A model generated the notes under the pieces. It saw nothing but the letters and a program-made list of their open reading frames with translations. It was not told where the DNA came from and searched no databases. The position numbers and the translations under genes were made by a program. A stretch of 64,000 bases of DNA, taken from NCBI GenBank assembly GCA_028283825.1, contig JAPWJW010000005.1, positions 806,001-870,000 of the forward strand, read 5' to 3'. Origin of the DNA: Azospirillaceae bacterium. GTDB taxonomy: Bacteria; Pseudomonadota; Alphaproteobacteria; Azospirillales; Azospirillaceae. Positions 1,211-63,902 of this stretch are shown piece by piece. Every line of letters begins with the position of its first letter. The stretch's first letter is position 1.

Positions 1211-1357
1211 TATGCCCTCAAGCGCCGGGCGCCAGCATCTGCTGGCTTGGCTTCCTCGATTTCCAGTCCGCCTACGGCTCCCCGGAAATCTGCGGCGGAC
1301 GCGGTCGCGTCCTATAGAAAAGAAGAAGGGCGACGCCGGTGGTATCCGGCGCCGCCC
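1211..1357 (+). repeat. Dispersed multi-hairpin intergenic element, copy A
   Basis: One of six copies of a roughly 150-base element. It opens with 'ccctcaagcgccgggcgcc', then hairpin gccagc/gctggc (1231-1236 with 1241-1246), hairpin gatttcc/ggaaatc (1258-1264 with 1284-1290), hairpin ggacgc/gcgtcc (1297-1302 with 1307-1312), and a 3' hairpin (1328-1339 with 1346-1357). Other copies have different stem bases but remain paired. It sits between the convergent VOC and hydrolase genes. Confidence 0.8.
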
Positions 1358-1364
1358 CTGCCCC

Positions 1365-1380
1365 ATTGCGATATCGCAAT
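1365..1380. repeat. Perfect 16-bp palindrome near the end of a convergent gene pair
   Basis: The palindrome attgcgatatcgcaat lies immediately before the stop codon of the minus-strand hydrolase at 1383. It could be a protein-binding site or part of a termination structure. No T-run follows, so I do not call it an intrinsic terminator. Confidence 0.4.
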
Positions 1381-1382
1381 GA

Positions 1383-2264
1383 TCACTTGGTCGTCAGCGT
1401 GAAGCCGTCCTTCGTGCCCACTTCCTGGTCCAGCGTCCCCTTCACTTGGCTGCCGGTTCCCCATTCCGCCATGAAGGCCAGGGACAGGCGGATAGCGGTC
1501 TTGAGCTGCGCCGCCTGGATGGGACCAGGCTGGGTGGCGTCGCAGATCAAGCCGCCGAAATAATGGTTGGCGCCGTCCAGCACCAGGCCATAACGGTGCC
1601 CGCCGGGGGCGGCGTTGTCGTAGCCGGCCAAATGGCCGTGCCAGCTGTCGGGCGTGCCGCCGGGCATGATATCGATGGTGCCGGTTTCCACCAGCGCCGG
1701 CGTTTCCAACGTGGCGTAGCCCTCGGCCGTGATCAGCCCGGGAATGGGCGGCGGCGGGGAGAAGGCCACGACGCAAGTGGCGGTGGCATCGCGCAGGGAC
1801 CCGGTGACGCCCTCCGGCACGACGGCCTGCGCACCACCCTGCACCAGGGCGGTCAGGCCGCCATAGCTGTGACCGGCGGCGATGTGCGGACCGCCGATAT
1901 GGGCCGACACGGCGCGCATGTCCTCGATCCGCGCCTTCCAGGTGGCGAGGCCGGGATACTTGTCATGCTGCGGATGGTCGGTGGAATCCACGTGCAGCGG
2001 CGCCACCACATCATAACCGGCGCCGACCCAGGCGCCGATCATGTCCGGATACTTCCACGGCGCCGACGCCGCCCCGTGGGAAAAGCTGATGATGCCGATG
2101 CGGCGCCCCCGCGCCCGCCAGGTCGACAGCGGGATGGTGTGGCCATCCGCCGCCGTCAGGGTGGACTTCTCCGGATCGAAGCCGGCGGCCAGGCCGGCCT
2201 TGGCGATCAGGGCGGCCATGGGCGCGCTGGCCAGGATGGCGCGGCGGGTGATCAGGAACGACAT
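1383..2264 (-). CDS. Exported alpha/beta hydrolase (chlorophyllase/PAF-hydrolase-like)
   Basis: A protein of 293 residues. The N-terminus carries 'ITRRAILASAPMAALIAKAG', a twin-arginine-type leader, so it is probably exported folded. An oxyanion-loop HGA motif is near residue 63, the nucleophile elbow GHSYGG places Ser at 133, and a His near the end ('GANHYFGG') completes a plausible triad. A chlorophyllase- or PAF-acetylhydrolase-like dienelactone hydrolase fold fits best; the substrate is unknown. The frame is open further upstream, but the ATG at 2264 is the one directly before the leader and 14 bases after the stop of the upstream hydrolase gene, giving a two-gene operon. Confidence 0.85.
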   Translation of the reverse strand: MSFLITRRAILASAPMAALIAKAGLAAGFDPEKSTLTAADGHTIPLSTWRARGRRIGIISFSHGAASAPWKYPDMIGAWVGAGYDVVAPLHVDSTDHPQHDKYPGLATWKARIEDMRAVSAHIGGPHIAAGHSYGGLTALVQGGAQAVVPEGVTGSLRDATATCVVAFSPPPPIPGLITAEGYATLETPALVETGTIDIMPGGTPDSWHGHLAGYDNAAPGGHRYGLVLDGANHYFGGLICDATQPGPIQAAQLKTAIRLSLAFMAEWGTGSQVKGTLDQEVGTKDGFTLTTK

Positions 2265-2278
2265 GGATGTTCTCCCTA

Positions 2279-3271
2279 TCAGGGGGCCGGCGCGGCGTCG
2301 GCCGGCGGCAAAGCGTCCAGGAAAGCCTTGAGGTCGGCGGCGAACTGGTCGGGAATTTCCCACATGGGCCAGTGGCCCACACCGGGATAGTGGATCAGCT
2401 TGACCTGCGTCTGGGTGAAGCGCTTCACCGAGGCGTCGGCACCTTGCGAGATCACCGTGTCCTCATCCGACCATTGCAGCAGCACCGGCACCCGCACCTG
2501 TTCGGCCACAGCGCCCATGTCGGTGGTCTGGAACAGCCGGGCGTTGGACTTGAGGAAGGACTGCTGGTTGGTGATGGCGCCGGCCAGATTGCCCATGTCG
2601 TACATCATCTGCGGCAAGTAATCCGGAACCACCCAGCCGGGGTGCGAGGTGTCCTCGAACACCCAGCGGTAATAGAACTTGGGATGGTAATCGGGCAGCA
2701 CGGCGTTGTGGAAGTTCAGCATCCAGCGGATGCGCCAGTCGACCTTGCGGGTCTGGCTGGGCCGTTCCAGCGGCAGCATGGAGAAGGTCATGGCCCGGAA
2801 ACGGTCCGGATTATCGATGTTCATCTGCAAAGCGACGTTGCAGCCGTTGGACGTGGCCACCACGATGATCCTGTCGTACTTCAACTCATCCAGCACCAGG
2901 CCCACCAGGCGGGCGGCCTCCGCCGTGGTGTAGCCCTTGGCGTCGGGACCGCTGAGGCCATAGGGCGGCCAATCCACCCGCACGATGGTGTAGTGGTCGC
3001 GCAGGCGCTCCACCGCCGGATCCCATTCGCGCATGTTGACGCCGGTGCCGTGCAGCATCAGCACCGCCGGCCCCTTGCCCTCCACCCGCACGTGCATGGG
3101 CACGCCGTCCACGGTGATGAAGCGCGATGGCGCCTGGGCGTAGCGTTCCGCCATCAGGGCCCGGTCGGACGCCAGCCAACCCAGCTTGGCCGGCACGAAC
3201 CACACCAGGAACACCACCGCCAGCAGCAGGATGAGGCCAAGCAGCCCCCCCGCGATCGTTCGCACCCTCAC
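2279..3271 (-). CDS. Membrane-anchored alpha/beta hydrolase
   Basis: A protein of 330 residues beginning with GTG; an AGGAGG ribosome site lies five bases upstream of it. Residues about 5-26 form one hydrophobic segment (signal anchor), so the enzyme likely faces the periplasm. The oxyanion loop is LHGTG near residues 73-77. The elbow reads A-T-S141-N-G, with Ala in the first position instead of Gly. An acid ('WSDED') and a C-terminal 'GVGHWPMWE' His complete the triad. It is probably an esterase or C-C hydrolase. It is followed after 14 bases by the Tat-type hydrolase gene. Confidence 0.85.
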   Translation of the reverse strand: MRVRTIAGGLLGLILLLAVVFLVWFVPAKLGWLASDRALMAERYAQAPSRFITVDGVPMHVRVEGKGPAVLMLHGTGVNMREWDPAVERLRDHYTIVRVDWPPYGLSGPDAKGYTTAEAARLVGLVLDELKYDRIIVVATSNGCNVALQMNIDNPDRFRAMTFSMLPLERPSQTRKVDWRIRWMLNFHNAVLPDYHPKFYYRWVFEDTSHPGWVVPDYLPQMMYDMGNLAGAITNQQSFLKSNARLFQTTDMGAVAEQVRVPVLLQWSDEDTVISQGADASVKRFTQTQVKLIHYPGVGHWPMWEIPDQFAADLKAFLDALPPADAAPAP

Positions 3272-3303
3272 CCACGCCTCCTTGGCGGTTGTCTCATACG
3301 CGT

Positions 3304-3464
3304 GGCATTTGATCGTAACCGCTCAAATGCCCCCTCAATCGGCGGGCGCCGGCATCCGCCGGCTTGCCTCATCCTCGCTTTCCAGTCCGCCTACGGCTCC
3401 CCGGAAAGCTCCGGCGGCCCCAGTCGGGGCCTACAACGGCATGAGCAAAGAGCCCATGCCGTTG
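3304..3464 (+). repeat. Dispersed multi-hairpin intergenic element, copy B
   Basis: This is the clearest copy. In order the hairpins are ggcatttga/tcaaatgcc (3304-3312 with 3323-3331), gccggc/gccggc around atcc (3348-3353 with 3358-3363), gctttcc/ggaaagc (3377-3383 with 3403-3409), ggcccc/ggggcc around agtc (3416-3421 with 3426-3431), and caacggcatg/catgccgttg (3434-3443 with 3455-3464). It fills most of the gap between two minus-strand hydrolase genes. Confidence 0.85.
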
Positions 3465-3511
3465 CTTCAACTTGGGAAATCATTTTGGACTTGAGCACCG
3501 CAACGGGCCGC

Positions 3512-4498
3512 TTACTTGTCCCGGTTCAGATAGGCATCGACCAGGTCGGCCACGCGTTCCGGCGATTCCAGCGCCGGGAAATGGCCCACCGTGTCCATGC
3601 GCACCAGCGAGCGGCTGGCGGCACCGGTCAGGTAGTCATACAGCGCCACCTCGGACGGCGGGGTCAGCACCGGGTCGCGCATGCCCCAGATGATCAGGAC
3701 CGGCGCCTTGACGGCGGCCAGATGCTCGGCCGTCGCCTGCTTGTTGGCGGTCAGCGCCATCAGGGCCAGATAGTTCTTCTCCGGCGCCCGCATGTTGACA
3801 CCGTAGTAATAATCAATGGTCGCGGGCGTCAGGCGCTTGGGCTCGCCGTACAGATATGAGAGATAGACCCGCCAGTATTCGCGGTCCTGGTAGCCGATCT
3901 TCCGGGCCCGCGCGATCTCCACATCCAACTCGGGCGTGGTCTTGATCTTGGCGTCGGCCACCGAGTTGGCCGGCGTGTTGGCCAGGATCAGCTGCGTCAC
4001 GCGGTCCGGATACGTGGCCGCGAAATAATAGGCCAGGGTGCCGCCGCTGCTGGTGCCGAACACCGCCGCCTTGTCTACGCCCAGCTTGTCCAGCAGGCGG
4101 GCCACCAGGGCCTCCGGCGCGCCGATGGTCTTCGCCGCCTCATCGCTCACCGGACCGGACAGGCTGGCCGGCGGCTGGTCGTAGCGGATGATGCGGTAGC
4201 GGCCCTTCAGCCGGTTGACGACCCCGTCCCAGGAATTCAGGCTGCTGGTGGAACCGTGCAGCAGCAGCAGCACCGGCCCCTTGCCCTCATCCCGGTAGCG
4301 GACCTCGACCCCGCCGAGATCCGCGTACTTGTCGCCGGGTGCCCCGAAGCGCTGGCGGATTTCCGCCAGGCTCGGGCGCTGCACCGCCGGTGGGGCGGCC
4401 TCAGGTGGGGTGCTTTCCGCCGCATGCGGCGCGGACGCCATCATCAGGACGCCCGCCACAACCAGACCCGCGATACGGCCTATCATTGCACCCCCCAT
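3512..4498 (-). CDS. Secreted alpha/beta hydrolase
   Basis: A protein of 328 residues. A Sec-type signal peptide covers about residues 1-27 and ends at 'APHAAES', so the protein is probably periplasmic. The oxyanion loop HGST is near 81-84, the elbow GTSSGG puts the nucleophile at Ser150, an acid lies in 'GMRDPVL' and the catalytic His in 'TVGHFPALE'. The triad is therefore complete, unlike several other alpha/beta-fold proteins in this window. Paralogous in plan to the two hydrolases downstream; the three may hydrolyse related esters outside the cytoplasm. A second possible start (Met5) would shorten the signal slightly. Confidence 0.85.
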   Translation of the reverse strand: MGGAMIGRIAGLVVAGVLMMASAPHAAESTPPEAAPPAVQRPSLAEIRQRFGAPGDKYADLGGVEVRYRDEGKGPVLLLLHGSTSSLNSWDGVVNRLKGRYRIIRYDQPPASLSGPVSDEAAKTIGAPEALVARLLDKLGVDKAAVFGTSSGGTLAYYFAATYPDRVTQLILANTPANSVADAKIKTTPELDVEIARARKIGYQDREYWRVYLSYLYGEPKRLTPATIDYYYGVNMRAPEKNYLALMALTANKQATAEHLAAVKAPVLIIWGMRDPVLTPPSEVALYDYLTGAASRSLVRMDTVGHFPALESPERVADLVDAYLNRDK

Positions 4499-4525
4499 AG
4501 ACTACCCCCTGTTTATTGTGATGGA

Positions 4526-5680
4526 TCAGGCCCGGCCCGACGTGACGAACCAGGAACGGAACACGCCTTCCGACGTGTCGGTGAACTTCTTTGGTGCCGT
4601 ACGGGCATGGAAGGCCGTGGACTGGTAACCGACACGGATGTCGGTGAAACCGGCCGCCTTCATCAGCTGGCCGTAGTCGGCCGACAGGGCGCCGCGCCAG
4701 TTGGGCTCATTATTGAACTGGGCCTCCAGTTCCGACGACAGCTCCTGCCACAGATCACCCAGGGTGTGCAGCAACGGCACCTCCAGGTGGATGGCGATGC
4801 CACCCGGGCGCAGCAGGCGGCGGCTTTCCGCCAGGATGTTGACGGCTGCCGCCTCCGACGTCTCATGCAGCACGACGCAGCTGTACACCACGTCGAAGGA
4901 GGCGTCGGGGAAGTTGGTGCGCTCCGCACTCTGTTCGGAGAAGTGGACGGCGGCCCCCAGGTGCTCCGCACGGCCATGGGCGTAGCGCAGCATGGACTTG
5001 CCCACATCGATGCCGTGCACCTCCGCATCGGGGAAGCAGACGGCCGCCGGCACCGTGCTGGTGCCGATGCCGCAGCCCATGTCCAGGATGCGCTTGGGCT
5101 GGATGTCGGGGGCGATGGTCAGCAGATGGGCCATGGCGGTGTGGCCGCGCAAATCGTTCAGCATGCCGCCGTTGCGGCCCAGCATGTAGACGGCACCGCC
5201 GCGATCCATCACGGCGCCCTGCAACACGGAGCCGTCATCCAGGGCGTTGCCGCCCGGCATCAGGTGGATGTCGCCGCGCAGGATGTAGTCTGGCGCTTTG
5301 AAGTCGGGGTCCAGGGTGACGCTGCCCTTGGGCGCTTCGACGGCGGCCAGGGCCTCAAGCTCACCCGCCTGGCGTTCCACGCTGTCCTCGACCGCCGCCC
5401 ACAGCTGGCGCTGGGATTCACGCTTGAGGCTGAGCCAGGTCTTGAAGCTGCCGAAATCCTGCATGCGCTCGCGCAGATCGTCCACCGGGCTGTTGGTGGC
5501 GCGGCCGTCCATGGCCGCCACCATCTTGCCGGCGATGTCGCGCTGGGCGGTTTCCAGGTTCTGCATGACGAAAAGCTTCAGGTCGCGCACGAACAGCTGT
5601 TCCACCAGCTCGTCATGCGTCGGCAGGGCGATCATGGGATGGGCCTGGGCGGCGCGCGCCTCGACAATGCCGTTGCTCAT
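4526..5680 (-). CDS. SAM-dependent methyltransferase with long N-terminal domain
   Basis: A protein of 384 residues. Residues 1-130 are a helical region. The segment 'GDIHLMPGG' (136-144) is shared with the second methyltransferase of this window (35015-36208). The Rossmann core starts with motif I 'ILDMGCGIGTST' (198-209), then 'VHGIDVGKSML' and 'LHETSEAAA', typical of class I methyltransferases (Methyltransf_25/11). I take the ATG at 5680 because a GGAGA site is well spaced from it; a GTG at 5686 overlaps the stop of the small gene in front. The partner gene (5683-6012) encodes a small helical protein and is translationally linked. The methyl acceptor is unknown. Confidence 0.88.
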   Translation of the reverse strand: MSNGIVEARAAQAHPMIALPTHDELVEQLFVRDLKLFVMQNLETAQRDIAGKMVAAMDGRATNSPVDDLRERMQDFGSFKTWLSLKRESQRQLWAAVEDSVERQAGELEALAAVEAPKGSVTLDPDFKAPDYILRGDIHLMPGGNALDDGSVLQGAVMDRGGAVYMLGRNGGMLNDLRGHTAMAHLLTIAPDIQPKRILDMGCGIGTSTVPAAVCFPDAEVHGIDVGKSMLRYAHGRAEHLGAAVHFSEQSAERTNFPDASFDVVYSCVVLHETSEAAAVNILAESRRLLRPGGIAIHLEVPLLHTLGDLWQELSSELEAQFNNEPNWRGALSADYGQLMKAAGFTDIRVGYQSTAFHARTAPKKFTDTSEGVFRSWFVTSGRA

Positions 5681-5682
5681 GC

Positions 5683-6012
5683 TCACTTCTCCCCAGTGCT
5701 CGGGTTGGATACGGACGCGAGGTCGGCCTGGGCCGCCTCCTGCAAGGGCCGGAACACCTTGGCCAGGATGTGCTGGCGCATGCGATCGCGCTCGACCTGG
5801 GCGGCCGCGTCGGGCGAGAACTCGTCGACGGCACCCGGCGCCAGGACACCGGAGGCCACCAGCAGCCGCTCGCAGGCATCCAGGCGGGCCCGCAGGATCG
5901 TGGCCTCCGACGCCAGCGACACGATCATCGCCAGCGTCTGCTCATCATACGTGCGGCTGCCCGGAATAGGGTCGAGCCGATTGGGGGTGCGGGGAAGCCG
6001 GCGACTTGTCAC
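5683..6012 (-). CDS. Small helical protein paired with the methyltransferase
   Basis: A protein of 109 residues with a GTG start preceded by a GAGG site. It is predicted to be all-helical, rich in Arg, Glu and Ala, with the central block 'LRARLDACERLL' (about residues 41-52). I do not recognise a named family, but it is clearly related to the small protein at 36208-36510 ('LRDRQDTLERLL' in the same place), and both sit directly before a methyltransferase gene of the same subfamily with touching or overlapping ends. A role as subunit or partner of the methyltransferase is inferred from this conserved pairing. Confidence 0.75.
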   Translation of the reverse strand: MTSRRLPRTPNRLDPIPGSRTYDEQTLAMIVSLASEATILRARLDACERLLVASGVLAPGAVDEFSPDAAAQVERDRMRQHILAKVFRPLQEAAQADLASVSNPSTGEK

Positions 6013-6254: not shown

Positions 6255-6267
6255 TCCACACAGTGGT
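6255..6267. promoter_or_regulatory. LysR-type dyad (T-N11-A form), site 1
   Basis: The sequence tccacacagtggt contains CCAC-ACA-GTGG, identical over 11 bases to the dyad at 55867-55877 between the LysR gene and its divergent neighbour. It lies about 245 bases upstream of the small-protein/methyltransferase operon. Confidence 0.5.
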
Positions 6268-6342: not shown

Positions 6343-6347
6343 GTCCA

Positions 6348-27084: not shown

Positions 27085-27208
27085 GCCCTCAATCGCCGGG
27101 CGCCCCCTGGGCTTGGCTTCCTCGCGTTTCAGTCCGCTTGGCGCTCCCCGAAACGCTCCGGCGGCCGCAGTCGCGGCCTGTACCGGTACGAGACACCCTC
27201 TCGTACCG
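27085..27208 (+). repeat. Dispersed multi-hairpin intergenic element, copy C
   Basis: The copy lies between rcoM and cowN. Hairpins are gccc/gggc (27102-27105 with 27109-27112), gcgtttc/gaaacgc (27124-27130 with 27150-27156), ggccgc/gcggcc around agtc (27163-27168 with 27173-27178) and cggtacgaga/tctcgtaccg (27184-27193 with 27199-27208). The last one touches the rcoM stop codon. Confidence 0.8.
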
Positions 27209-27919
27209 TCAAACCGCCAGCAACTGGCGAACCAGCTTGACCTTGTCGCGCCCGATGGGGATGCGCAAACCGGGATCGCCCGCCAGATGCAGGCCCCAGC
27301 GTCCGTCCACCCGGTCGGCGGCCAGGACATGGCGCAAATTGACCAGATGCTTGCGGTGCACGCGCACAAACAGCCCGGGGTCGACCCTGCGCTCCAGCTC
27401 CGCCAGCGGCAGGGGGCACAGGGATGATGCCCCCGGCGTCACCGCCTGGGAATAATGCCCCTGGGCGGTCAGGCAGACGATGTCGGCGATGTCGATCAGG
27501 ACCGTGCCCTTGCCGCGCAGGACGGGCAATTTCAGCAGGTGCGGCTGCCCGGCCGGCTGTTCAGTGCCCATGGCATGATCGCCCTGGATGTAGAACATCA
27601 TGCAGAATCCCTGCCCGCTGACGAAGCGCGTGACCTTGGCCACCAGGCTGCCCATGGGCGTGGTGACCATCATCGACGCCGTGCCGTCGTTCGCCGCCGC
27701 CGCGGTGTCGATCAGCCACCGCACCTTGGTCCGCGCGGCGGCCGGGTGGAATTCCAGGATGTCGCGGCCAATGGCGTCATTGGCCCGCACGGCCATCAGG
27801 CGCCGCACCTGTTCGTTCACCGCCAGGACGCGGCGCTGATCATCCAGCAGAATGACGCCGACGGGCGCCCGCTGAAGCTGGTATTCGAAACTGGGCGCCA
27901 GGGCGCCGGCGGCGGTCAT
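27209..27919 (-). CDS. rcoM: RcoM-type CO-sensing regulator (heme PAS plus LytTR)
   Basis: A protein of 236 residues. An N-terminal PAS domain (about 1-120) has 'GVILLDDQRRVLAVNEQ' and the heme-ligand segment 'FHPAAARTK' with His58, which matches the proximal His of RcoM; Met83/Met84 ('SMMVTTPMG') match the Met ligand region. The Cys that serves as ligand in oxidised Paraburkholderia RcoM has no equivalent here (Ala-rich segment about 72-77). From about 130 a LytTR DNA-binding domain follows ('IADIVCLTAQGHYSQAV', 'LFVRVHRKHLVNLRHV'). RcoM is a one-protein CO sensor and activator. The gene directly downstream is cowN, its known target in R. rubrum. Confidence 0.85.
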   Translation of the reverse strand: MTAAGALAPSFEYQLQRAPVGVILLDDQRRVLAVNEQVRRLMAVRANDAIGRDILEFHPAAARTKVRWLIDTAAAANDGTASMMVTTPMGSLVAKVTRFVSGQGFCMMFYIQGDHAMGTEQPAGQPHLLKLPVLRGKGTVLIDIADIVCLTAQGHYSQAVTPGASSLCPLPLAELERRVDPGLFVRVHRKHLVNLRHVLAADRVDGRWGLHLAGDPGLRIPIGRDKVKLVRQLLAV

Positions 27920-45013: not shown

Positions 45014-45985
45014 ATGGCCAAGCATCAGCAGGGAAAGGGCATTCCATTGACCGTCAACCGCCGTGATTTCGCCAAGGGCCTGGGGCTTTCCGTCGCCGCC
45101 GTCACCATGACGAGTGCGGCCGCCAAGGCCGCATCCCCCGCCATCCCCGTCCCGCCGAAGGGCCCCTGGTCGCGCACCGGGGCGCTTCAGCGGTCCGGCG
45201 GCGTGCTGCACTACGCCGTGCTGGGCCCGGATGACGGTGGGGCCAAGCCGCCCATCGTCCTGCTGCACAAGCTGGGCGGCTGGCTGTCCGACTGGCGCTT
45301 CGTGGCGCCGGCGCTCGCCGAGGGCCGCCGGGTCATCGCCTTCGACCTGCCGGGCCACGGCGGCTCGCGCTGGTCGGGGGAGCCGCCCTATCTGCAAACC
45401 CTGGGTGAAACGGCGGCCACCCTGGTCGGCGCCTTCGACGAGATGGGCTTCGACCAAGTTGACCTGGTCGGGACTTCGTTGGGCGGCTGTCTGTCCGTGC
45501 CGCTGGCGGCCATGTGGCCGGAGAAGGTGCGCCGGCTGGCGCTGGTATCCTGCGCCCTGGGCAAGCACCGCACACTGCAGGAAATCCGCGACAACGTGGA
45601 TGCCAAGCAGAAGGATCTTTACGACCGGAACGGCTATCCCGTGCCGACCCCGCCGGAACTGCTGACCCAGATTTTCGGCATCGTGAACACCGGCCCCATC
45701 AACGCCGACGGCATCGAAAGCCGCAAGGCGGCCGGCCGCTGGATCCAGCCGTCGGAACGCGGCGTCGCCTTCGCCGACATCATGGGCACCCTGCCCCGCA
45801 TCCAGGCGCCGACGCTGCTGGTCTACGGCCAGTTCGACAAGGCCTACGTCAAGTTCCGGACGGATGCCGAAAAGGCGCTGAAGAGCAGCCGGACGGAGGT
45901 CATCCCCGACGCCGGCGCCTTCGTCATGCAGGACAATCCGCCGGCCACGGCGGCCGTGCTGCGAAAGTTCCTGAACGAAACATGA
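45014..45985 (+). CDS. Tat-exported alpha/beta-hydrolase-fold protein lacking the catalytic His
   Basis: A protein of 323 residues. The leader 'NRRDFAKGLGLSVAAVTM' is a clear twin-arginine signal (residues 15-32). The fold is evident from 'IVLLHKLGGWLSDW' and the elbow 'LVGTSLGGCL' with Ser155, and an acid is present in 'VYGQFDKAY'. Near the C-terminus the usual 'GHF' of the triad reads 'DAGAFVMQD', so the catalytic His is replaced by Ala. It may have another function or use a different base. It sits 21 bases after the LLM gene, and a dispersed hairpin element begins right after its stop. Confidence 0.85.
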   Translation: MAKHQQGKGIPLTVNRRDFAKGLGLSVAAVTMTSAAAKAASPAIPVPPKGPWSRTGALQRSGGVLHYAVLGPDDGGAKPPIVLLHKLGGWLSDWRFVAPALAEGRRVIAFDLPGHGGSRWSGEPPYLQTLGETAATLVGAFDEMGFDQVDLVGTSLGGCLSVPLAAMWPEKVRRLALVSCALGKHRTLQEIRDNVDAKQKDLYDRNGYPVPTPPELLTQIFGIVNTGPINADGIESRKAAGRWIQPSERGVAFADIMGTLPRIQAPTLLVYGQFDKAYVKFRTDAEKALKSSRTEVIPDAGAFVMQDNPPATAAVLRKFLNET

Positions 45986-45987: not shown

Positions 45988-46138
45988 CCAGCGGCACGAA
46001 ATTTCGACTCATGCCGCTGGAGGCCGGCGACGGCCGGCCCCGGAGTGAGCACCGCAGGGCGGAACGAGGATAGCCCAAGCCAGCGGATGCTGGCGCCCGG
46101 CGCTTGAGGGGGCCCTTGATCGGTCACGATCAAGGGCC
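45988..46138 (-). repeat. Dispersed multi-hairpin intergenic element, copy D (reverse orientation)
   Basis: Read on the minus strand the copy begins with hairpin ggcccttgatcg/cgatcaagggcc (46138-46127 with 46122-46111), then gccagc/gctggc around atcc, a GC-rich core shared with copy E, ggccggc/gccggcc, and the closing stem ccagcggcatg/cgtgccgctgg (46020-46010 with 45998-45988, one G-T pair). It fills nearly the whole gap between the hydrolase and aldehyde dehydrogenase genes. Confidence 0.85.
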
Positions 46139-46167
46139 GCGTGTATGAGTCAAAAAACAGGGGCATC

Positions 46168-50694: not shown

Positions 50695-50724
50695 GAAGTC
50701 CCCCGTTCTCTTATAATGCGCGTG

Positions 50725-50872
50725 GTCTTTGATCGTGAACGATCAAAGACCCCCTCAATCGCCGGGCGCCGGTATCCACCGGCTTGGCTTCCTCGTTGCG
50801 CCCTGCGGTGCTCACTCCGGGGCCGGCCGTCGCCGGCCTCCAGCGGCACGAAACAAATTTCCGTGCCGCTGG
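50725..50872 (+). repeat. Dispersed multi-hairpin intergenic element, copy E
   Basis: Hairpins in order are gtctttgatcg/cgatcaaagac (50725-50735 with 50740-50750), gccggt/accggc around atcc, ggccggc/gccggcc, and ccagcggcacg/cgtgccgctgg (50840-50850 with 50862-50872). The core is nearly identical to copy D. It lies between the amine oxidase start and the TonB gene end. Confidence 0.85.
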
Positions 50873-50923
50873 CATAATGCCCCTCACTGCCAATGGCGGC
50901 CCCCCACCGGCCGCCATTCGCCC

Positions 50924-50961
50924 AAAAGAAAACGCCCGGGCCGATTTCTCGGGCCCGGGCG
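50924..50961 (-). terminator. Intrinsic terminator of the third TonB receptor gene
   Basis: Stem cgcccgggcc (50933-50942) pairs with ggcccgggcg (50952-50961). On the minus strand it is followed by ttttctttt. It starts nine bases after the stop codon at 50971 that would end the receptor in its original frame. Confidence 0.8.
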
Positions 50962-50970
50962 GGACTGGCA

Positions 50971-53464
50971 CTAGAAGCGATAGCTGCCGCGGATGCCCCA
51001 GGTGCGCAGTTCGCGCAGCTGGACGATGACCGCGGAAGCTGGTCGAGAGATGGGCGAACGTCGGGTCGATGACGTAGCCGTCCACCGCGCTGTAGTAGGA
51101 CTTGTCGTTGAACAGGTTGGTCGCGAAACCTTCGATGGAATAGCTGTCGGTCTTCACGCCGATATGCAGGTTGACCTGGTTGGTGGCCGGCGTGCGCACC
51201 AGGTTGGCCACGTCGGAATACGCACCCGACTTGTAGGTGAAGTCCACCCGGCTGAAGCCCTCGACATCGCCCAGGATGGGCAGGCTGGGCAGCGGCGTGG
51301 TGTAGGACAGCGACGCCGTGCCCGACCACTTCGACACGAACGGCGCCTGGTTGCCGGAGAAGTCGGTGATGCCGGTCAGCGCCGTGACCTGCGAGTTCGA
51401 GGTCTTTACGATCTTGCTGTCGATGTAGGCGCCGCTCAGGTCCAGTTCCCATTCCTTGGTGAGGACGGCATTGATTTCCGCCTCCAGGCCCTTGATGTGG
51501 ACCTCACCGGCGTTGGTGGAGGCCAGCACCTGCTGGGCGCCCAGCACCGGATCGACGTAGCTGTAGGCCTGCTGGTTGATCTGGTTGGACCAGTCGGCGT
51601 AGTAGGCGGCCAGGTCGTAGCGCAGGCGGTTGCCGAACAGCTTGCCCTTCATGCCGATTTCGTAATTCTTCAGCGTTTCCGGATCGACGGCGACCTTCAG
51701 GTTGTTCTTCTCGGCCACGGCCACGGCCGAGGCCGCGGCGGTCAGGAACGAGGTGTTGAAGATGCCGGGGTTCACGCCTTCGGAGTACGAAGTGTAGATC
51801 ATCGTGGCGTCGTCCACGTTGAACTGGGCGATCACGCGCGGCATGAAGTTATGGTAGTATTTCTCCAGTAACACGGTGCCACCCGGATAGAAACCGGCCG
51901 GAATGAAGGCGCTGTTGGTCGCCGTCGTGCCCGCCGGCGCCGCGTAGGCCGCCATGTCATCCACCTGGTAACGGCCGTCGAAGTTCAGCGTGAACCACGG
52001 CGTGAAGTCGTAACCGATGCCGTAGAAGGCGCTCCACGTCGTGTCGGAGGTGGCGCCGCTGATCGCCGACTTCAGCGTGGTGGTGCCGCCGCCGCTGCTG
52101 GACTGCGACCAGGTGTCCATCCAGCTGAGACCACCCGTCAGGTGCAGGGGGCCGTCTTCATAGGATGCGCGCACTTCCTGCGACCAGTCGTGCGAGCGGC
52201 CCTCAACCAGGTAGGGGTAGTTGTAGAAACCTTCGCCGCTGCTGGACTTGATGGACGTGCTGTAGAAATTGTCCAGGTCGGCCAGTTCGCTGCTGAACAC
52301 GCTATTGTAGGCGCTCAGCGAGGAAAGGGTGATGCCGGTGTCGCCGATGGTCCAATCGGCCGACAAATGGGCGTGGTAGTCACGGGCCACCAGGCCGTAG
52401 CCCTGGGTGCCGTCATCGGGGTTGATGACGCGGCCGGAACCGTTGGCCAGGAAGTTCTTGATATAGGCGCTGTTGGTGGTGTTGGCCGACGGGGTCAGGC
52501 CGGACAGGCCGGGCGTGACACCGCAGATGAAGCGGTTGCCGGTGGGCAGGGTGCAGTTCGACTGGTTGGCGACCAGGGTCTGGCCGGCGCTGTTGGTGAC
52601 GCCGTAGGCGCCGATCAGCCCCTGCGCGGGCGGGCCGTCGTCCAGGTCGGTGAACATGCCGAACAGCTTGATCTTCAGATCGTCGTTCGGCTTCAGCACG
52701 ATGGCCAGCGAGGCGTTCTTGGTGTCCTGGTCGCCCAGGGTCTGGCCAGGCACGCCGGCATTCTCGTAGGAACCGTCCTTGCCGAACTCACGGGCGCTCA
52801 GGCGGAAGCCCAGCTTGTCGGGGATGATGGGGCCGGCGATCTCGGCCGAGAAATCCTGGTTGTGGCGCGTGCCCACCATGCCGTCGATGGAACCGCTGTA
52901 TTCCTCGGTCGGGTCCTTGGTGACGATGTTGATGGCGCCGGCGAAGGTCTGGCGGCCGAAATAGGCCGACTGCGGGCCCTTCAGCACTTCGACGCGCTCA
53001 GGATCGGTGATGGTCTGGATGGCGGCCGGGTTGCTGACCGGCGCACCGTCGATGAACAGCGACGCGGTCTGCAACTGCGAGGTCGACGGCGCCATGCCGC
53101 GCAGCACGATGGCCTGGAACGACCGGTCGGCGCGGCCGCCGTTGCTGGCCTGGCCCACCACGTTGGCGCCCGGCACGAACTGCGCCAGGTCCTGGGTGGA
53201 GGTGATGCCGCGCGCCTCGATATCGCCGCCGGTCAGCGCGGTGATCGCGACCGGGGTCTTCTGCATGTCCTCGTTCTTGCGGCGGGCCGTGACGACGATT
53301 TCCTCCAGGCCGTCCTCGGCCGGGGCGGCGGCATCCGCGGCGGGCGCGCTCTGCTGGGCGAAAGCGGTGCCGGCGGCCATCACGCCGGTGAAAAGCGTCA
53401 GTGCGGCGGCAAGACAAGTGCCGCTTCGCAGGACCGACGAGAGATTTTTACTGTCCAAAGCCAT
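50971..53464 (-). pseudogene. TonB-dependent outer-membrane receptor, copy 3, 3'-end frameshift
   Basis: The receptor belongs to the same subfamily as copies 1 and 2: signal peptide, 'EEIVVTARRKNEDMQKTPVAITAL', plug with 'VEVLKGPQSAYFGRQTFAGAINIVT', barrel. Near base 51037 an extra C shifts the frame after 'PTFAHLSTSF'; without it the protein would continue 'AVIVQLRELRTWGIRGSYRF' and stop at 50971, ending in Phe as barrels need. As sequenced, the frame runs on to 50711 with unrelated residues. The start at 53464 (or Met at 53467) has an AGGGGG site. It is either a sequencing error or a fresh mutation that would block barrel assembly. Confidence 0.88.
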
Positions 53465-53959
53465 CATTCCCCCTGTTCGAGAATCGGATGATATTGTTTG
53501 TGTTTTTGGTACAGCCGCCCGTTTCCTGAAGCATGACTGCATCAAGATTAACAGATCGATAATTCAGCCTTTCTCCAATAAATGGAGGCCGAAAAATTAC
53601 TGTTGTTTGGGGAGCGCTCATAAGCTGTCAGAAGAAGGATTAAAATCCATCGAATTCGACGACCTATCCACCTGCTGGACAACCAAGCACTCCTCACTTC
53701 TATTTGCAGCCTTGAACCCGCATTTAGACGGATTCCGGGCGTATGCCCAAGGGACGCTCCCTGCCCCCGGGACATGGATGAACCGCGACAGCACGCCCGC
53801 GAGGCCCATGGCCCGCAAGGCGCGCGCGTGCGGCGAACTGACAAAAACCTGCAAGACGGCGGATGGGCCGTCCCATCCACACCGAAACCACCGCAATACT
53901 GTCGGCATGCGCGGCAAAGCCGGCCGCCCCCAGATCAGCCCCTGTTCAGAGCCCTAGAA
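53465..53959. promoter_or_regulatory. Upstream region of TonB copy 3
   Basis: This roughly 490-base stretch contains no convincing gene. The part 53500-53720 is AT-rich. A LysR-type dyad lies at 53667-53679, about 203 bases upstream of the receptor start, the same distance as in copies 1 and 2. The rest (53720-53959) shows nothing I can interpret. Confidence 0.5.
53667..53679. promoter_or_regulatory. LysR-type dyad (T-N11-A form), site 6
   Basis: The sequence tccacctgctgga, within ctatccacctgctggaca, matches the boxes upstream of TonB copies 1 and 2 in sequence (ctatccac-N-tg-N-tggaca) and in distance to the receptor start. Confidence 0.6.
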
Positions 53960-58021: not shown

Positions 58022-58023
58022 GG

Positions 58024-60057: not shown

Positions 60058-60168
60058 TCAGCCCCAAAACTATTCAGCACCCGCCGGACCGGCCTTTCCC
60101 CTCGTCCATGACATTGTTCTGCTATATCGTTGCCCCAGAAAATCATAAATGGACAGGGTTAGGCCATA

Positions 60169-60230
60169 CCACTGGCAGTGGAAGTAATTCCATACCGCTC
60201 CGTTTCAAGTCGAAATCCGTTTTCGACTTG
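60169..60230. promoter_or_regulatory. Two inverted repeats upstream of the MFS gene
   Basis: ccactg-g-cagtgg (60169-60181) resembles the LysR-type dyads but with wider spacing. caagtcgaaa/tttcgacttg (60206-60215 with 60221-60230) is a perfect 10-bp inverted repeat with a 5-base loop. Both lie in the 229-base gap before the MFS gene at 60287 and are candidate operators. Confidence 0.4.
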
Positions 60231-60286
60231 GGGACGGATAAGGCTGTCGTTTGGCGCGTGCCCTTTGAACAGGAGCGGGCAATATC

Positions 60287-61645
60287 TTGGTCGAGACGAC
60301 AGTGCGCGACGGCGCAGCGCCCCCCATCACGGCATCCATCCCGACCCTGGCCCGGCCCATCGGTCCGGCGGTGGCCTGGTTCACCGTCTTCACGCTGTGC
60401 GTGGCGCAGATCATCTCCACCATCGACCGCGGCATGCTGGCCCTGGTGATCGACCCCGTGCGCGCCGACCTGAAGATCACCGAGATCGACATCGCGCTGT
60501 TGCAGGGTTTCGCCTTTTCCATCTTCTACGTCACGGTCGGGCTGCCGCTGGGGGCGGTCGCCGACATGGTCAGCCGCCGCCGGCTGCTGGTGGGCGGTAT
60601 CCTGGTGTGGAGTGCCGCCACCATCGGCGGCGGCCTGGCGCAGGATTTCGGCGGCATGTTCACCTCACGCCTGTTCATCGGCGTGGGCGAGGCGGTGCTG
60701 GGCCCCTGCGCCGTCACCATGATCAGCGACCTGTTCCCGGTGCACGGCCGCGGCCGCCCCATGGCAGTCTACGTCTTCGGCACCATGATCGCCTACGGCA
60801 TCGGCTCGCTGGTCAGCGGCTATATCCTGCAAGTCGCCCCCCAGGGGGCGTTCGACGGCCTGCCCTATATCGGCACCCTGGCGCCCTGGCGCATCGCCTT
60901 CGTCCTGGTGGGCGCCTTCGGTTTCGTCATCGCCGCCGTGCTGGGCCTGCTGCGCGAACCGGCACGGCAGCAGCGCGCGGCCTCGGCAGAGACGACCGGA
61001 TTCCGCGCCGGCCTGACCCATTTCTGGGCGGCGCGGGCGGTGTTCCTGCCGCTGTACGGCGCGCTCGCCTTCTTCGCCATGGGCGGTGCGGCCGCCACCG
61101 GCTGGGGTGCCGTGCTGCTGACCCGCGCCTACGGCTATAATCTGGGGGCGGCCGGCAAGGGTCTGGGCTCCGCCTACATCGCCTGGGCCGCCATCGGCGC
61201 CATCATCGCCAGCGTGCTGGTCGACCGCGTCGCCCGCCGGGCGGGGGCGGTGGGTAAGGTGCGGCTGGCCGCCGGCCTGGCCCTGCTGTGCATCCCCTCG
61301 GTGGTCGCGGTCGCCGCCCCCAACGGCACCATCGCCACCATCCTGCTGGCGGAGGTGATGTTCGCCAGCGCCCTCTACGGCACCACCATGCTGTCGGTGA
61401 TATCGGAGGTGGCGCCCCTGCGGGTGCGCGGCCTGGCGGTGGCGCTGTACGCCTTCGTCATGACCATGATCGGCGGCTCCATCGGCCCCATCGCCGTGGC
61501 CTATCTGACCGAACACGTCTTCAAGTCGCCGGCCGCCGTCGGCTCCTCCATGGCCATTGTCGGCATCGCCGCCCTGTTGCTGTCGGCAACACTGGCCTGG
61601 GTTGCCTCGCGCCATGTGGCCAAGGTGGTCCAGGCCACCGCCTGA
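60287..61645 (+). CDS. MFS transporter (spinster-like type), TTG start
   Basis: A protein of 452 residues with 12 predicted membrane helices. 'TIDRGMLALVIDPVRADLKITEIDIALLQG', 'GLPLGAVADMVSRR' and 'GVGEAVLGPCAVTMISDLFPVHGRGR' place it with the carriers at 28004 and 42271. The likely start is TTG at 60287, with AGGAG about 11 bases upstream; no better ATG is near. It probably transports the same substrate class as the other spinster-like carriers of the window. Confidence 0.9.
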   Translation: MVETTVRDGAAPPITASIPTLARPIGPAVAWFTVFTLCVAQIISTIDRGMLALVIDPVRADLKITEIDIALLQGFAFSIFYVTVGLPLGAVADMVSRRRLLVGGILVWSAATIGGGLAQDFGGMFTSRLFIGVGEAVLGPCAVTMISDLFPVHGRGRPMAVYVFGTMIAYGIGSLVSGYILQVAPQGAFDGLPYIGTLAPWRIAFVLVGAFGFVIAAVLGLLREPARQQRAASAETTGFRAGLTHFWAARAVFLPLYGALAFFAMGGAAATGWGAVLLTRAYGYNLGAAGKGLGSAYIAWAAIGAIIASVLVDRVARRAGAVGKVRLAAGLALLCIPSVVAVAAPNGTIATILLAEVMFASALYGTTMLSVISEVAPLRVRGLAVALYAFVMTMIGGSIGPIAVAYLTEHVFKSPAAVGSSMAIVGIAALLLSATLAWVASRHVAKVVQATA

Positions 61646-61787
61646 GGCCATCGGCCATTGCGTGGACGCCCGGGCATCGCCGCCTGGGCGTTCGTGCCCC
61701 CTTCCCTGACCATCACCCCGGAACCGATCACGGTTCCGATCGATCGCGGCTGGCCCCAGGCCAGCCCGCCTCTGGAGACATGCCCCG

Positions 61788-62624
61788 ATGACCGCCCCCA
61801 TGACCAGCGTCAAACGCGCCTATGCCGACAGCCGCCACGGCCAGCTTCACTATCGCGTCGTCCAGCCGACGGACCCGGTCGCGGGCCTGCCGCCGCTGCT
61901 GTGCCTGCACCAGACGCCCAGCCACAGCGGCGACTGGCTACCCGTGATGCCGGACCTGGGTGCCAGGCGCGTGGTGGTGGCGGCGGACACCCCCGGCTAC
62001 GGCATGAGCGACCCGCCCCCCGCCCCCACCACCATCGAGGATCTGGCGGACATCATGGGCACTCTGATGACCGACCTGGCGGCCGACGGCGTGGTGCCAG
62101 CGGGCCCGTTCGACGTGATGGGTTTCCACACCGGATCCCTGGTCGCCACCCAGCTGGCGCGGTCCCTGCCCGACCGGGTGCGCCGGGCGGTGGTGTTCGG
62201 CCTGGCGGCTTACCCGGCCGACATCCGTGCTGAAAAGCTGGCGAACCTGGCCACGGTGTTTCCGCTGCCCGACGGCACGCTGAACCACGTGGAAAAGCTG
62301 TGGAGCATCATCAGCCAGTTGAGCGACCCGCGCCGCGACGCGGAACAGCGGCACGTCGCCATGGCGGAATGCCTGCGGCTGGGCAGCCGCATGACCTGGG
62401 GCTACCAGTCCGTCTATCGCTTCGATTTCCTGGGCGCCATGACGGCGGTGAAACAGCCGGTGCTGGTCATGAACCCCGAGGATGATTTGTGGACCGTCAC
62501 GCATCAAACGTCCCACACCTATCCCAACGGCCGGCGCTTCGACATACCGGGCGTCAAGCACGGGGTGCTGGAACTGGAGAAGGCCCTGGTGCTGGCGGAG
62601 ATCGAGGCCTTCCTGGCGCCTTGA
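61788..62624 (+). CDS. Alpha/beta-hydrolase-fold protein with His at nucleophile elbow (third)
   Basis: A protein of 278 residues, cytoplasmic. It has 'LCLHQTPSHSGDW' (38-50), 'AADTPGYGMSDPP' and the elbow 'FDVMGFHTGSL' with His114 in the nucleophile position. A late His is present in 'GVKHGVLELE'. Motifs match the proteins at 13697 and 19140, forming a subfamily repeated in two modules. It is convergent with the second LysR gene. Confidence 0.85.
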   Translation: MTAPMTSVKRAYADSRHGQLHYRVVQPTDPVAGLPPLLCLHQTPSHSGDWLPVMPDLGARRVVVAADTPGYGMSDPPPAPTTIEDLADIMGTLMTDLAADGVVPAGPFDVMGFHTGSLVATQLARSLPDRVRRAVVFGLAAYPADIRAEKLANLATVFPLPDGTLNHVEKLWSIISQLSDPRRDAEQRHVAMAECLRLGSRMTWGYQSVYRFDFLGAMTAVKQPVLVMNPEDDLWTVTHQTSHTYPNGRRFDIPGVKHGVLELEKALVLAEIEAFLAP

Positions 62625-62658
62625 CCGGATCCTTGATCTGGCCGCGCGGCCGATCCCC

Positions 62659-63567
62659 CTAGCGCGAAGCGCGGCCGATCCAGTGCCGGATCATGGACTT
62701 CAGCTGCCGCGCGACCTTGGACTCATACCGGTCCTTGAGGGTGATGAAGCCGAAGGAGGGTGCGGGGATTTCCGACCCCGGCAAGGCCCGCATGGTACCG
62801 GCCTTCAGCTCATGCGCCACCACCTCGCGCGCCACCATGCCGATCATCTGGCCGTGCAGGATCAGGTGCTTCACGAAGGCGATGGAGGATGACTTGATGG
62901 CCTTGCTGTCGTCGGTATGGCCGAACTTGCGCATCACCCGCATGACGTCCTCGTTCCGGTCGATCATGTCGGGACGGTCATAGGCGTGGACCTGGGCCCA
63001 GGTGTACTGACCGAAGGGGGCGCCCTCGGCGATCTGCCTGAAGATGGGATGATCGGCGGCGGCGACCACCGCGTATTCCTGGGTGATCAGGGAATCGAAG
63101 ATGAAGTCCTGGTGCTCATACCCCTCGGGGAAGCCGCAGACGGCGAAGTCCAGGTCGCCGGTGGTCAGCAGGGCCAGGATCTGCGAGGTGTAACCCTCAC
63201 GCACCCATAGGTCGATGGCGGGATAGCGTTCGACGAATCCCGCCATCACCCGGGCCAGCGCCTCATTCATCATGATGGGGTGGACACCGACCGCCAGGCT
63301 GGGGACGCGGTTGATTTCCGAGATGTCGTTGATGATGCGCTGTTCCTCGTTCAGCATCAGCTTGGCGCGCTGAACCAGGGTTTCGCAAATCTCCGTCGGG
63401 CGCACGCCGGTGGGCCCACGCTCGAACAACGAGGTGTTCAGTTCCTCCTCCAGCTGCTTGATGCTGGAGGTCAGGGCCGGCTGGGTGACGCCGATGATCT
63501 GGGAGGCCTTGCGCAGGCTGCCCGTTTCATAGACCGCGATCATCCGTTTCAGCTGGACGAGATTCAT
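62659..63567 (-). CDS. LysR-family transcriptional regulator (second)
   Basis: A protein of 302 residues: 'MNLVQLKRMIAVYETGSLRKASQIIGVTQPALTSSIKQLEEEL' is the winged helix-turn-helix, followed by an effector domain with 'LAVGVHPIMMN' (compare 'IEVGVHPIMLN' in the regulator at 55971). The two regulators are paralogs. It is convergent with the hydrolase-fold gene and preceded by a dispersed hairpin element. Its targets are unknown; it could share the T-N11-A dyads with the first regulator. Confidence 0.94.
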   Translation of the reverse strand: MNLVQLKRMIAVYETGSLRKASQIIGVTQPALTSSIKQLEEELNTSLFERGPTGVRPTEICETLVQRAKLMLNEEQRIINDISEINRVPSLAVGVHPIMMNEALARVMAGFVERYPAIDLWVREGYTSQILALLTTGDLDFAVCGFPEGYEHQDFIFDSLITQEYAVVAAADHPIFRQIAEGAPFGQYTWAQVHAYDRPDMIDRNEDVMRVMRKFGHTDDSKAIKSSSIAFVKHLILHGQMIGMVAREVVAHELKAGTMRALPGSEIPAPSFGFITLKDRYESKVARQLKSMIRHWIGRASR

Positions 63568-63672
63568 ACCCTGTATCGCTCACGAGGTTCCGCCGAGGCG
63601 ACTGGAGCATACAGGCACGCACCCCGATAGCTATGCGCTTGCGTTCGGTTTGCCCGACTGTTGGAAAGTCAT

Positions 63673-63902
63673 GTTCCCTCAGACGCCGGGCGGGCCCATC
63701 CGGGCCCTTGGGCTATCCTCGCCTTTCAGTCCGCTACGCTTCCCGAAAGGCTCCGGCGGACGCCGTCGCGTCGCGTCCTACAGCGGCATTAGAGCAAGAT
63801 GCGATCACGCGTGATCGCATCTTGCCCTTAAGCTGTTCATGATAGAGCGGATTTACACGATCAGGTGATTCCACCTGATCGCGTTCCGCTCTAATGCCGC
63901 TG
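63673..63902 (+). repeat. Dispersed multi-hairpin intergenic element, copy F with nested palindromes
   Basis: The core has gggccc/gggccc around atcc (63692-63697 with 63702-63707), gcctttc/gaaaggc (63721-63727 with 63745-63751) and ggacgc/gcgtcc (63758-63763 with 63773-63778). The closing stem cagcggcattagagc (63781-63795) pairs with gctctaatgccgctg (63888-63902). It encloses a perfect 30-bp palindrome (63795-63824) and a hairpin gatcaggtg/cacctgatc (63859-63867 with 63872-63880) flanked by agagcgga/tccgctct (63844-63851 with 63885-63892). Confidence 0.8.

What the first reader, a model, noticed from the sequence alone, without database searches (positions are those of the whole stretch)
1211..63902. 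A six-copy intergenic element with covarying hairpins
Copies at 1211-1357, 3304-3464, 27085-27208, 45988-46138 (reverse), 50725-50872 and 63673-63902 share an opening ccctca(a)-cgccgggcgcc and a fixed order of hairpins. The stem bases change but pairing is kept: second stem gccagc/gctggc, gccggc/gccggc, gccggt/accggc, gggccc/gggccc; third stem gatttcc/ggaaatc, gctttcc/ggaaagc, gcgtttc/gaaacgc, gcctttc/gaaaggc; fourth stem ggacgc/gcgtcc, ggcccc/ggggcc, ggccgc/gcggcc; outer stems likewise. Compensatory change in several helices is the mark of selection on structure (RNA or cruciform DNA). Two core classes exist: A, B, C, F versus D, E. I know of no named family with this layout.
Basis: partly seen in the sequence, partly recalled or inferred. 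Interest (0 to 1): 0.8.

Follow-up and report, generated by a model that had tools for sequence, protein, structure and literature searches.

The report
Mobile hairpin-cassette repeat of Azospirillum relatives
These bacteria carry roughly five hundred copies of a small, gene-less DNA element built from interchangeable hairpins that settles just behind genes, sometimes exactly in a stop codon; it is a new variety of a known kind of bacterial repeat, and what moves it is unknown.

Summary
The six copies are real and are the only strong ones in the window. They belong to a family of roughly 500 copies per genome (29 in 400 kb sampled at round coordinates), abundant in 7 of 7 genomes of the genus. 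A 38-nt head module recurs patchily in related alphaproteobacteria. Covariation is strong: 97.1% of 1478 stem cells pair. It looks DNA-like: G·U is 0.5% of cells against 4-6% in tRNAs, stems vary more than linkers, hairpins assort almost independently. In a tandem array a single hairpin changed and nothing else. Copies differ by presence between species. Full-length forms (15 of 70) have imperfect terminal inverted repeats and, in part of them, a 3-bp TNA duplication; copy D duplicates the TGA stop codon of the neighbouring gene. Copies lie downstream of genes and avoid divergent gaps. No RAYT (REP transposase) is needed: 0 of 7 genus genomes. Best reading: a non-autonomous mobile DNA repeat, REP-like in placement, MITE-like at its ends, with exchangeable hairpin cassettes. 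The mobiliser was not found; RNA function is neither shown nor needed.

The parts
1215..1316 (+). Copy A, class-1 core, no 5' hairpin; begins 7 nt after the stop of the ORF ending at 1207
   Evidence: R1 120.2 bits; ORF 701-1207; upstream sequence
3304..3331 (+). Copy B 5' terminal hairpin
   Evidence: located
3332..3435 (+). Copy B class-1 core (P1/P2 head, P3 with mini-hairpin, P4)
   Evidence: R1 131.1 bits
3434..3464 (+). Copy B 3' terminal hairpin
27086..27182 (+). Copy C class-1 core, shortened P2
   Evidence: R1 92.6 bits
27184..27208 (+). Copy C 3' hairpin, abutting the end of the ORF 27209-27919 (-)
45983..45985 (.). Copy D target duplication, right copy: TGA on the + strand, the stop codon of the ORF 45014-45985 (+)
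45989..46019 (-). Copy D 3' terminal hairpin
46019..46110 (-). Copy D class-2 core
   Evidence: R1 56.7 bits
46111..46138 (-). Copy D 5' terminal hairpin
46146..46148 (.). Copy D target duplication, left copy: TGA on the + strand
50714..50716 (.). Copy E target duplication, left copy (TAA)
50724..50751 (+). Copy E 5' terminal hairpin
50752..50841 (+). Copy E class-2 core
   Evidence: R1 55.0 bits
50841..50871 (+). Copy E 3' terminal hairpin
50875..50877 (.). Copy E target duplication, right copy (TAA)
63676..63782 (+). Copy F class-1 core, no 5' hairpin
   Evidence: R1 97.0 bits; upstream sequence
63781..63902 (+). Copy F 3' hairpin, its arms separated by a nested second repeat (about 63791-63895)

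Best explanation
A non-autonomous mobile DNA repeat, about 90-175 bp and so too short for a transposase gene, made of hairpin cassettes joined by invariant linkers. Full-length form: TNA | 5' terminal hairpin - head module (CCCTCA..., P1/P2) - P3 or its class-2 replacement - P4 - 3' terminal hairpin | TNA. SHOWN: high copy number, presence/absence between related species, imperfect terminal inverted repeats with a 3-bp TNA duplication in part of the full-length copies, a stop codon as target in at least two cases, placement at gene 3' ends, nearly strict Watson-Crick covariation, near-independent assortment of the hairpins, and replacement of one hairpin inside an otherwise identical tandem copy. 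INFERRED: a transposase acting in trans moves full-length copies; TNA is self-complementary and fits two stop codons on either strand, so insertion into a stop codon restores it and does no harm, which with purifying selection would give the 3'-end bias. Hairpins are then exchanged between the many copies by short-tract gene conversion or template switching, so both arms change together. The fixed linkers and loops suggest that a protein reads them on DNA extruded as hairpins. Most copies (55 of 70) lack one or both terminal hairpins; how those arise is undetermined.
For: Copy number: 29 matches of at least 35.8 bits in 20 stretches of 20 kb at round coordinates of the own genome, extrapolating to about 520. 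Mobility: 36 of 40 G000 copies could be anchored on both sides in N. viridazoti and 29 of 36 have no detected copy in the orthologous interval; in reverse 12 of 13 were anchored and 5 of 12 have none. Empty site: at G003:C16 about 79.9 kb the element stands between two TAA, the first being the in-frame stop of the upstream gene, and N. iridis has one TAA there, also an in-frame stop. TSD: 12 of 47 full-length copies match at one register (7 at the overlapping +1/+1 register, 0-4 at the other 88 tested); where both sides are TNA, 12 of 16 are identical against 4.2 expected (P = 6e-5). Placement: of 70 copies 33 lie between convergent genes (16.6% of intergenic length) and 2 between divergent genes (28.9%). 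Watson-Crick: 8 G-U in 1478 cells against 18 in 311 tRNA pairs (P = 6e-9), or 12 in 280 without a doubtful tRNA-SeC call. Stems (P2-P4) vary 0.233 per site, unpaired columns 0.095. Excess mutual information: 1.01 bits for paired columns, 0.13 within a hairpin, 0.01 between hairpins, where 3 of 62 column pairs exceed z 3. Cassette replacement: in L335 three tandem copies are identical and the fourth differs at 6 positions, all inside one hairpin; the orthologues of C3:1164969 differ at 6 of 12 P2 stem positions and 3 of 86 other core positions (P = 6e-5). RAYT not needed: PF01797 in 0 of 7 genus genomes.
Against: No transposase with matching ends was found: 30 of 30 5' ends read, of 85 in the genome, lead straight into the core, and the three groups of DDE_Tnp_1 elements that I could delimit have other ends. 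35 of 47 full-length copies do not keep an exact duplication at the fixed register; 55 of 70 copies lack one or both terminal hairpins, and two species-specific gains are core-only with small replacements and no clear duplication (G006 102801 and 204039), so one DDE mechanism does not explain all. The TSD register was set after looking at some of the same copies, and a few of the 47 are orthologues of each other. Orthologous sites sometimes hold a copy of another class or orientation, and at one site (G006 199056) the interval counted as empty in G000 still holds degraded element sequence, so the 'no copy' counts include decay. Direct recognition of hairpin DNA is untested.
Confidence: 0.66

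Rival explanations
1. The compensatory pattern is purely mutational: template switching and quasi-palindrome correction rewrite one arm from the other, so perfect stems persist with no selection or protein reading the hairpins; the repeat spread long ago and drifts.
For: PMC8794818 (abstract and opening paragraphs seen) describes template switching producing multibase compensatory changes and maintaining stems. Few one-sided changes and a whole-hairpin replacement fit.
Against: Linkers and loops are more conserved than stems (0.095 versus 0.233), which a purely mutational process does not explain; in L335 two loop bases change with the arms, which looks like exchange rather than arm correction; several copies are absent from relatives at 94-95% identity.
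Confidence: 0.2
2. An RNA element: transcribed in 3' UTRs, with selection on RNA structure (mRNA stabiliser, ribosome-stalling hairpin within 15 nt of the stop codon, terminator or processed sRNA).
For: 29 of 50 cores that face an upstream gene end start within 15 nt of its stop codon; PMC12306157 (passages seen) cites an earlier study in which E. coli REPs that close to a stop codon lower translation. RNA folds of three copies on both strands are stable, but only moderately below shuffles (z -0.99 to -2.33).
Against: G-U is 0.5% against 4-6% in tRNAs; stems vary more than linkers; 18 of 70 copies sit in tandem gaps in opposite orientation to the genes; copies are gained and lost between species; separate terminator-like hairpins with T-runs lie next to some copies (by eye). 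No RNA-seq was available.
Confidence: 0.13
3. A classical RAYT-mobilised REP or BIME/REPIN: Y1 tyrosine transposase cuts GTAG-tagged hairpins as single strands.
For: Read on the minus strand, P4 is preceded by GTA(G) in most copies; the placement is that of REPs (PMC3733652, section 15 read).
Against: PF01797 in 0 of 1 own genome, 0 of 7 genus genomes and 3 of 21 genomes with 13 or more head matches, against 19 of the 61 others; a TNA duplication points to another kind of event.
Confidence: 0.04

Closest known systems
REPs / BIMEs, in particular the CGTC-tagged REPs of alphaproteobacteria (PMC3733652)
   Same: Many intergenic palindromes, close to gene 3' ends, mostly convergent and unidirectional gaps, heterogeneous stems, no dedicated transposase known for the CGTC group (abstract; section 15)
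   Different: 20-40 bp palindromes there; here a fixed chain of several hairpins (core 90-107 bp in the window) with invariant linkers, and in full-length copies terminal repeats and TNA duplications. CGTC REPs are said there to be missing in Acetobacteraceae (passage), where the head module occurs
MITEs
   Same: Short, no room for a transposase gene, terminal inverted repeats and target duplication in full-length copies, high copy number
   Different: No autonomous partner found; copies without one or both ends are the majority; internal hairpins covary and assort as cassettes
IS1031 group of the IS5 family
   Same: 3-bp TNA target duplication (PMC12016507, one passage read); elements with TNA duplications and DDE_Tnp_1 genes are present in this genome
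   Different: Their terminal repeats read GAGTCC..., the repeat's read TAC(G/C)(C/A)GCGGC
Rfam RF02353 BjrC68 (Bradyrhizobiaceae sRNA)
   Same: Only Rfam family with any match to copy B up to E = 1 (16.3 bits, minus strand)
   Different: Far below its gathering score of 39 bits; not a member

Membership tests
REP (repetitive extragenic palindrome) in the broad sense | high-copy intergenic palindrome near gene 3' ends | tested here: met
REP (repetitive extragenic palindrome) in the broad sense | unit of 20-40 bp | tested here: not met
   cores of 90-107 bp in the window; D and E about 165 bp with their duplications
RAYT-REP / REPIN | GTAG tag at the hairpin foot | tested here: inconclusive
   minus strand GTA plus a paired G before P4 in most copies; not in the 9 of 70 ending TTGTCGCT
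RAYT-REP / REPIN | cognate RAYT (PF01797) in the genome | tested here: not met
   0 of 7 genus genomes
CGTC-tagged REP | terminal CGTC/CCTC/TGTC, 8-9 bp stem almost always starting with AT pairs, CCA tail | tested here: not met
   compared by eye with the description in PMC3733652 section 6; outermost pairs are mostly G-C (P2 57 of 61, P4 59 of 61; P3 A-U in 12 of 61)
MITE | terminal inverted repeats | tested here: met
   left TACGCGCGGC, right (reverse complement) TACCAGCGGC, imperfect; full-length copies only
MITE | target site duplication | tested here: met
   TNA; 12 of 47 exact at the fixed register, 12 of 16 where both sides are TNA; 35 of 47 do not show it
MITE | ends shared with an autonomous element | tested here: not met
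   30 of 30 5' ends read (of 85 found) lead into the core; no partner in 14 DDE_Tnp_1 loci. Other transposase families were not searched, Y1 apart
IS5/IS1031-derived element | IS1031-type terminal repeats | tested here: not met
   GAGTCC... versus TACCAGCGGC
Structured RNA family (Rfam) | match at gathering score | tested here: not met
   0 matches in the window
Structured RNA family (Rfam) | transcription as a defined RNA | not testable with these tools
   no RNA-seq

The most novel reading that the evidence does not exclude
A mobile DNA element whose hairpins are exchangeable cassettes: fixed single-stranded linkers and loops are read by an unknown, non-RAYT recombinase, while stem sequences are free and are continually replaced arm-with-arm by cassette exchange among about 500 copies, so that covariation of a textbook 'RNA' strength arises at the DNA level; full-length copies use TNA targets including stop codons as self-repairing safe sites.
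Probability: 0.3. Interest if true: 0.75.

Novelty: new variant of a known kind. Interest (0 to 1): 0.52.

Why it matters
Covariation is widely used as proof of conserved RNA structure. This family gives very strong covariation with little G·U, with hairpins that assort almost independently and, in a tandem array, one replaced whole in an otherwise identical copy; it is a clean natural case for separating selection from cassette exchange or template switching, and a warning for covariation-based RNA discovery in repeat families. It also poses a concrete question: what moves about 500 copies of a RAYT-independent palindromic repeat. Insertion into stop codons with duplication of the stop would be a simple way for an element to fill a compact genome without harm.

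Tried and rejected
RAYT mobilisation: rejected. Autonomous partner: a scan for TIR-like 12-mers with up to 2 mismatches in the window and L196-L280 gave 244 sites away from known copies; they were looked over but not examined one by one, and no pair stood out around a transposase. Ends of DDE_Tnp_1 elements were compared and differ; only three groups could be delimited from the 14 loci. Known RNA family: rejected. Phage origin: no match in 50,697 phage records at E 1e-5; 16 stretches in viral contigs hold the head pattern, of which I read only L335 for its array. Plasmid collection: only 39-nt head matches in two N. cyanobacteriorum replicons. Literature: 8 searches; five stretches of the element searched as letters gave 0 papers; searches with Nitrospirillum, Azospirillum, Magnetospirillum or Rhodospirillales plus repeat terms listed nothing that I recognised as this element (titles and abstract starts of the rows shown only). 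This covers open-licence PMC papers only. My first tRNA control parsed nothing and was redone.

Rows dropped before counts: the placement test used 70 copies (61 class-1, 9 class-2); three partial or cut matches (L217:19922, L227:13259, L232:8800) and two weak ones (L210:7876 at 23.0 bits, L224:779 at 25.4 bits) were left out. Copy E fell inside a called ORF and was placed by the next genes. The 35-bit line was drawn after seeing the gap between 35.8 and 23.0 bits. The 61-copy alignment was restricted to E <= 1e-14, which removes class-2 and degraded copies and favours well-paired ones; it was fitted to the structure, so its pair counts lean that way. The MAFFT-made 33-copy alignment gives the same picture, with the structure written by hand on it. 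Gene calls are from my own simple caller, not a published one. The R1 scan of named loci covered 100 of the 106.
Full report
What was checked. The six copies were read from the window and aligned. BLAST with copy B showed many more in the same genome, so 33 class-1 core sequences (30 BLAST loci plus A, C and F; B is L001) were aligned, a structure of 25 pairs was written by hand and a covariance model R1 was built. With filters off R1 finds the six copies in the window at 55 bits or more and nothing else above 15.8 bits.

How many and where. Twenty 20-kb stretches of the own genome, chosen at round coordinates and not for their content (although searches had already listed places of up to 150 copies), hold 29 matches of 35.8 bits or more, which extrapolates to about 520 in 7.16 Mb. 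The whole-genome search itself was capped (150 scored, the lowest at 101.6 bits). The 7 genomes of the genus, the own one included, reach 96-99 of the 99 candidates scored; other genera of the family are patchy, and 15 of 40 genomes in all have a match. Contig lengths identify the genus as Nitrospirillum, one member being filed as Azospirillum sp. B4. A 38-nt head model R2 is present in 42 of 82 genomes of the order, 6 of 13 genera, and in 21 of 289 drawn from the class. A 19-mer of the head lies in 106 stretches of named genomes, chiefly Nitrospirillum, Azospirillum-like, Magnetospirillum, Paramagnetospirillum, Terasakiella, Roseomonas-like and other Acetobacteraceae or their MAGs; in some of these, such as L054 of an Akkermansiaceae MAG, no hairpin follows, so the 19-mer alone does not prove an element. 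In the other genera printed the head is followed by other hairpins, so the family is modular.

Anatomy. Core: CCCTCA, P1 around P2 (loop ATCC), TCCTC linker, P3 with a mini-hairpin, CTCCGGCG linker, P4 (loop A/GGTC), CTA. Of 70 copies in sampled and contiguous own-genome DNA plus the window, 15 have both terminal hairpins, 1 the 5' hairpin only, 26 the 3' hairpin only, 9 end in TTGTCGCT, and 19 have neither. In 30 of 30 loci read, out of 85 genomic matches, the 5' hairpin is followed by the core (the reversed-pattern control gave 0).

Covariation. On 61 copies 97.1% of 1478 cells are standard pairs and 271 cells changed on both sides (0 of 500 shuffles as high for either; slid structures reach at most 59.0% and 55); the number of further pair types does not exceed the shuffles (37 against 35.4). 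G·U is 8 of 1478 against 18 of 311 in 14 tRNAs of the same DNA, or 12 of 280 without a doubtful tRNA-SeC. Among P2, P3 and P4 mismatches, A-C (18 cells) outnumbers G·U (6), and nine unpaired cells fall on one P3 pair; read on the minus strand these 18 would be G·U, about 1.6%, still low. Stems vary more than unpaired columns (0.233 versus 0.095), unlike typical RNA families (recalled). Hairpins are nearly independent of one another: mean excess mutual information 0.01 bits between hairpins (3 of 62 column pairs above z 3, two of them between P3 and its own mini-hairpin), 0.13 within a hairpin and 1.01 for paired columns.

Whole-hairpin replacement. In L335, an IMG/VR contig with an array of 108-bp copies, three successive copies are identical and the fourth differs at 6 positions, all inside one hairpin: two pairs changed on both sides plus two loop bases; the last copy of the array differs in several hairpins. 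The copy at G000:C3:1164969 and its N. viridazoti orthologue share flanks, P3 and P4, but P2 differs at three pairs on both sides; 3 other differences lie in the remaining 86 core positions, and the sequence after the core diverges. Of the four orthologous pairs aligned this is the cleanest and was picked after seeing all four; one of the others has the element in opposite orientation, one holds a different class, and in one the N. viridazoti P2 arms do not match each other well (my reading), as if half converted.

Mobility. In 420 kb of G000 against 400 kb of syntenic N. viridazoti there are 40 matches (of 37 bits or more) and 13 (of 29.6 bits or more). Of 36 G000 copies anchored on both sides 29 have no detected copy in the other species' interval, tandem copies counted singly and intervals reaching 3951 bp; in reverse 5 of 12 have none. 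One of these five intervals (G006 199056) still holds degraded element sequence in G000, so decay is part of the count. G002, G003 and G006 are 94-95% identical here. Of 8 G003 copies examined, five (3349, 22799, 41727, 59885, 108396) are absent from G006, one (101804) is shared with G006 and G002, one (27046) was too long to print and one (118107) had no anchor. At G003:C16 about 79.9 kb (59885) the element stands between two TAA, the first being the in-frame stop of the upstream gene, and N. iridis has one TAA there, again an in-frame stop. G004 and a variant in G000 also occupy the site while G002 and G006 do not, so loss or recombination also happens. Some gains are core-only with replacement of a few bases (G006 102801, 204039).

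Ends. Forty-seven full-length copies from all fetched loci were aligned by their terminal hairpins; a few are orthologues of each other. Triplets outside the ends match in 12 of 47 at one register, in 7 at the overlapping +1/+1 register and in 0-4 at the others. Where both triplets fit TNA, 12 of 16 are identical against 4.2 expected (P = 6e-5). The register was suggested by earlier inspection of some of these copies. Copy E has TAA on both sides. Copy D, which the automatic scan missed, has TGA on both sides, one being the stop codon of the ORF 45014-45985. Copy B does not match at the register. A TNA duplication is described for the IS1031 group (PMC12016507, one passage read). Elements with TNA duplications and DDE_Tnp_1 genes are in this genome, but with other ends.

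Placement. With a simple gene caller, 33 of 70 copies lie between convergent genes, 35 between tandem genes (17 in the same and 18 in opposite orientation) and 2 between divergent genes, while intergenic length is 16.6%, 54.5% and 28.9% respectively (P = 3e-9 for the convergent excess and 3e-8 for the divergent deficit). Fifty cores face an upstream 3' end, median distance 12 nt, 29 within 15 nt. The same pattern is reported for REPs in other genomes (PMC3733652, sections 6, 7 and 15 read).

What moves it. No other candidate was found among the families searched (Y1 and DDE_Tnp_1). The mobiliser, and whether the copies without terminal hairpins arise by the same route, stay open.

Interpretation. 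The evidence favours a non-autonomous mobile DNA repeat with interchangeable hairpins. An RNA role is possible but not needed. Template switching, described by others as creating multibase compensatory changes (PMC8794818, abstract and opening paragraphs seen), may contribute; the loop changes in L335 suggest that exchange between copies is also at work. Compensatory change alone, in a repeat family, should not be taken as proof of selection on RNA structure.

Noticed in passing
window 50711-53545 (-): The TonB-dependent receptor ORF is out of frame at its 3' end: a C-terminus like those of its neighbours (...GSYRF*, compare ...KYSF*) lies in another frame with its stop at 50971-50973, so the ORF's overlap with copy E is a read-through after a frameshift.
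   Followed up: partly
window 63791-63895: A second repeat of about 105 bp with its own hairpins sits inside the 3' hairpin of copy F; two more copies (92-96% identical) are in the sampled 400 kb (L199, L206).
   Followed up: partly
L317 (G000:C3 about 215 kb): An insertion sequence with a DDE_Tnp_1 gene sits in what looks like a 3' terminal hairpin of the element (flank ACCAGCGGCA), as if the hairpin were an IS target.
   Followed up: no
L335 and L336 (IMGVR_UViG_2708742415_000004): Arrays of head-to-tail copies (108-109 bp period in L335) on a contig classed as viral; similar short arrays occur in N. viridazoti (L060, four copies) and the own genome (C3:1217342-1217696, three copies).
   Followed up: partly
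L119, L039, L101 and G006:C1 about 740.8 kb: Several copies carry insertions of roughly 17-30 nt inside a hairpin, some of which look palindromic themselves, possibly a still smaller inserted repeat.
   Followed up: no
L034, L044, L197: Some copies lie just upstream of what looks like a start codon in reverse orientation, where the TGAGGG end could serve as or overlap a Shine-Dalgarno sequence (by eye).
   Followed up: no
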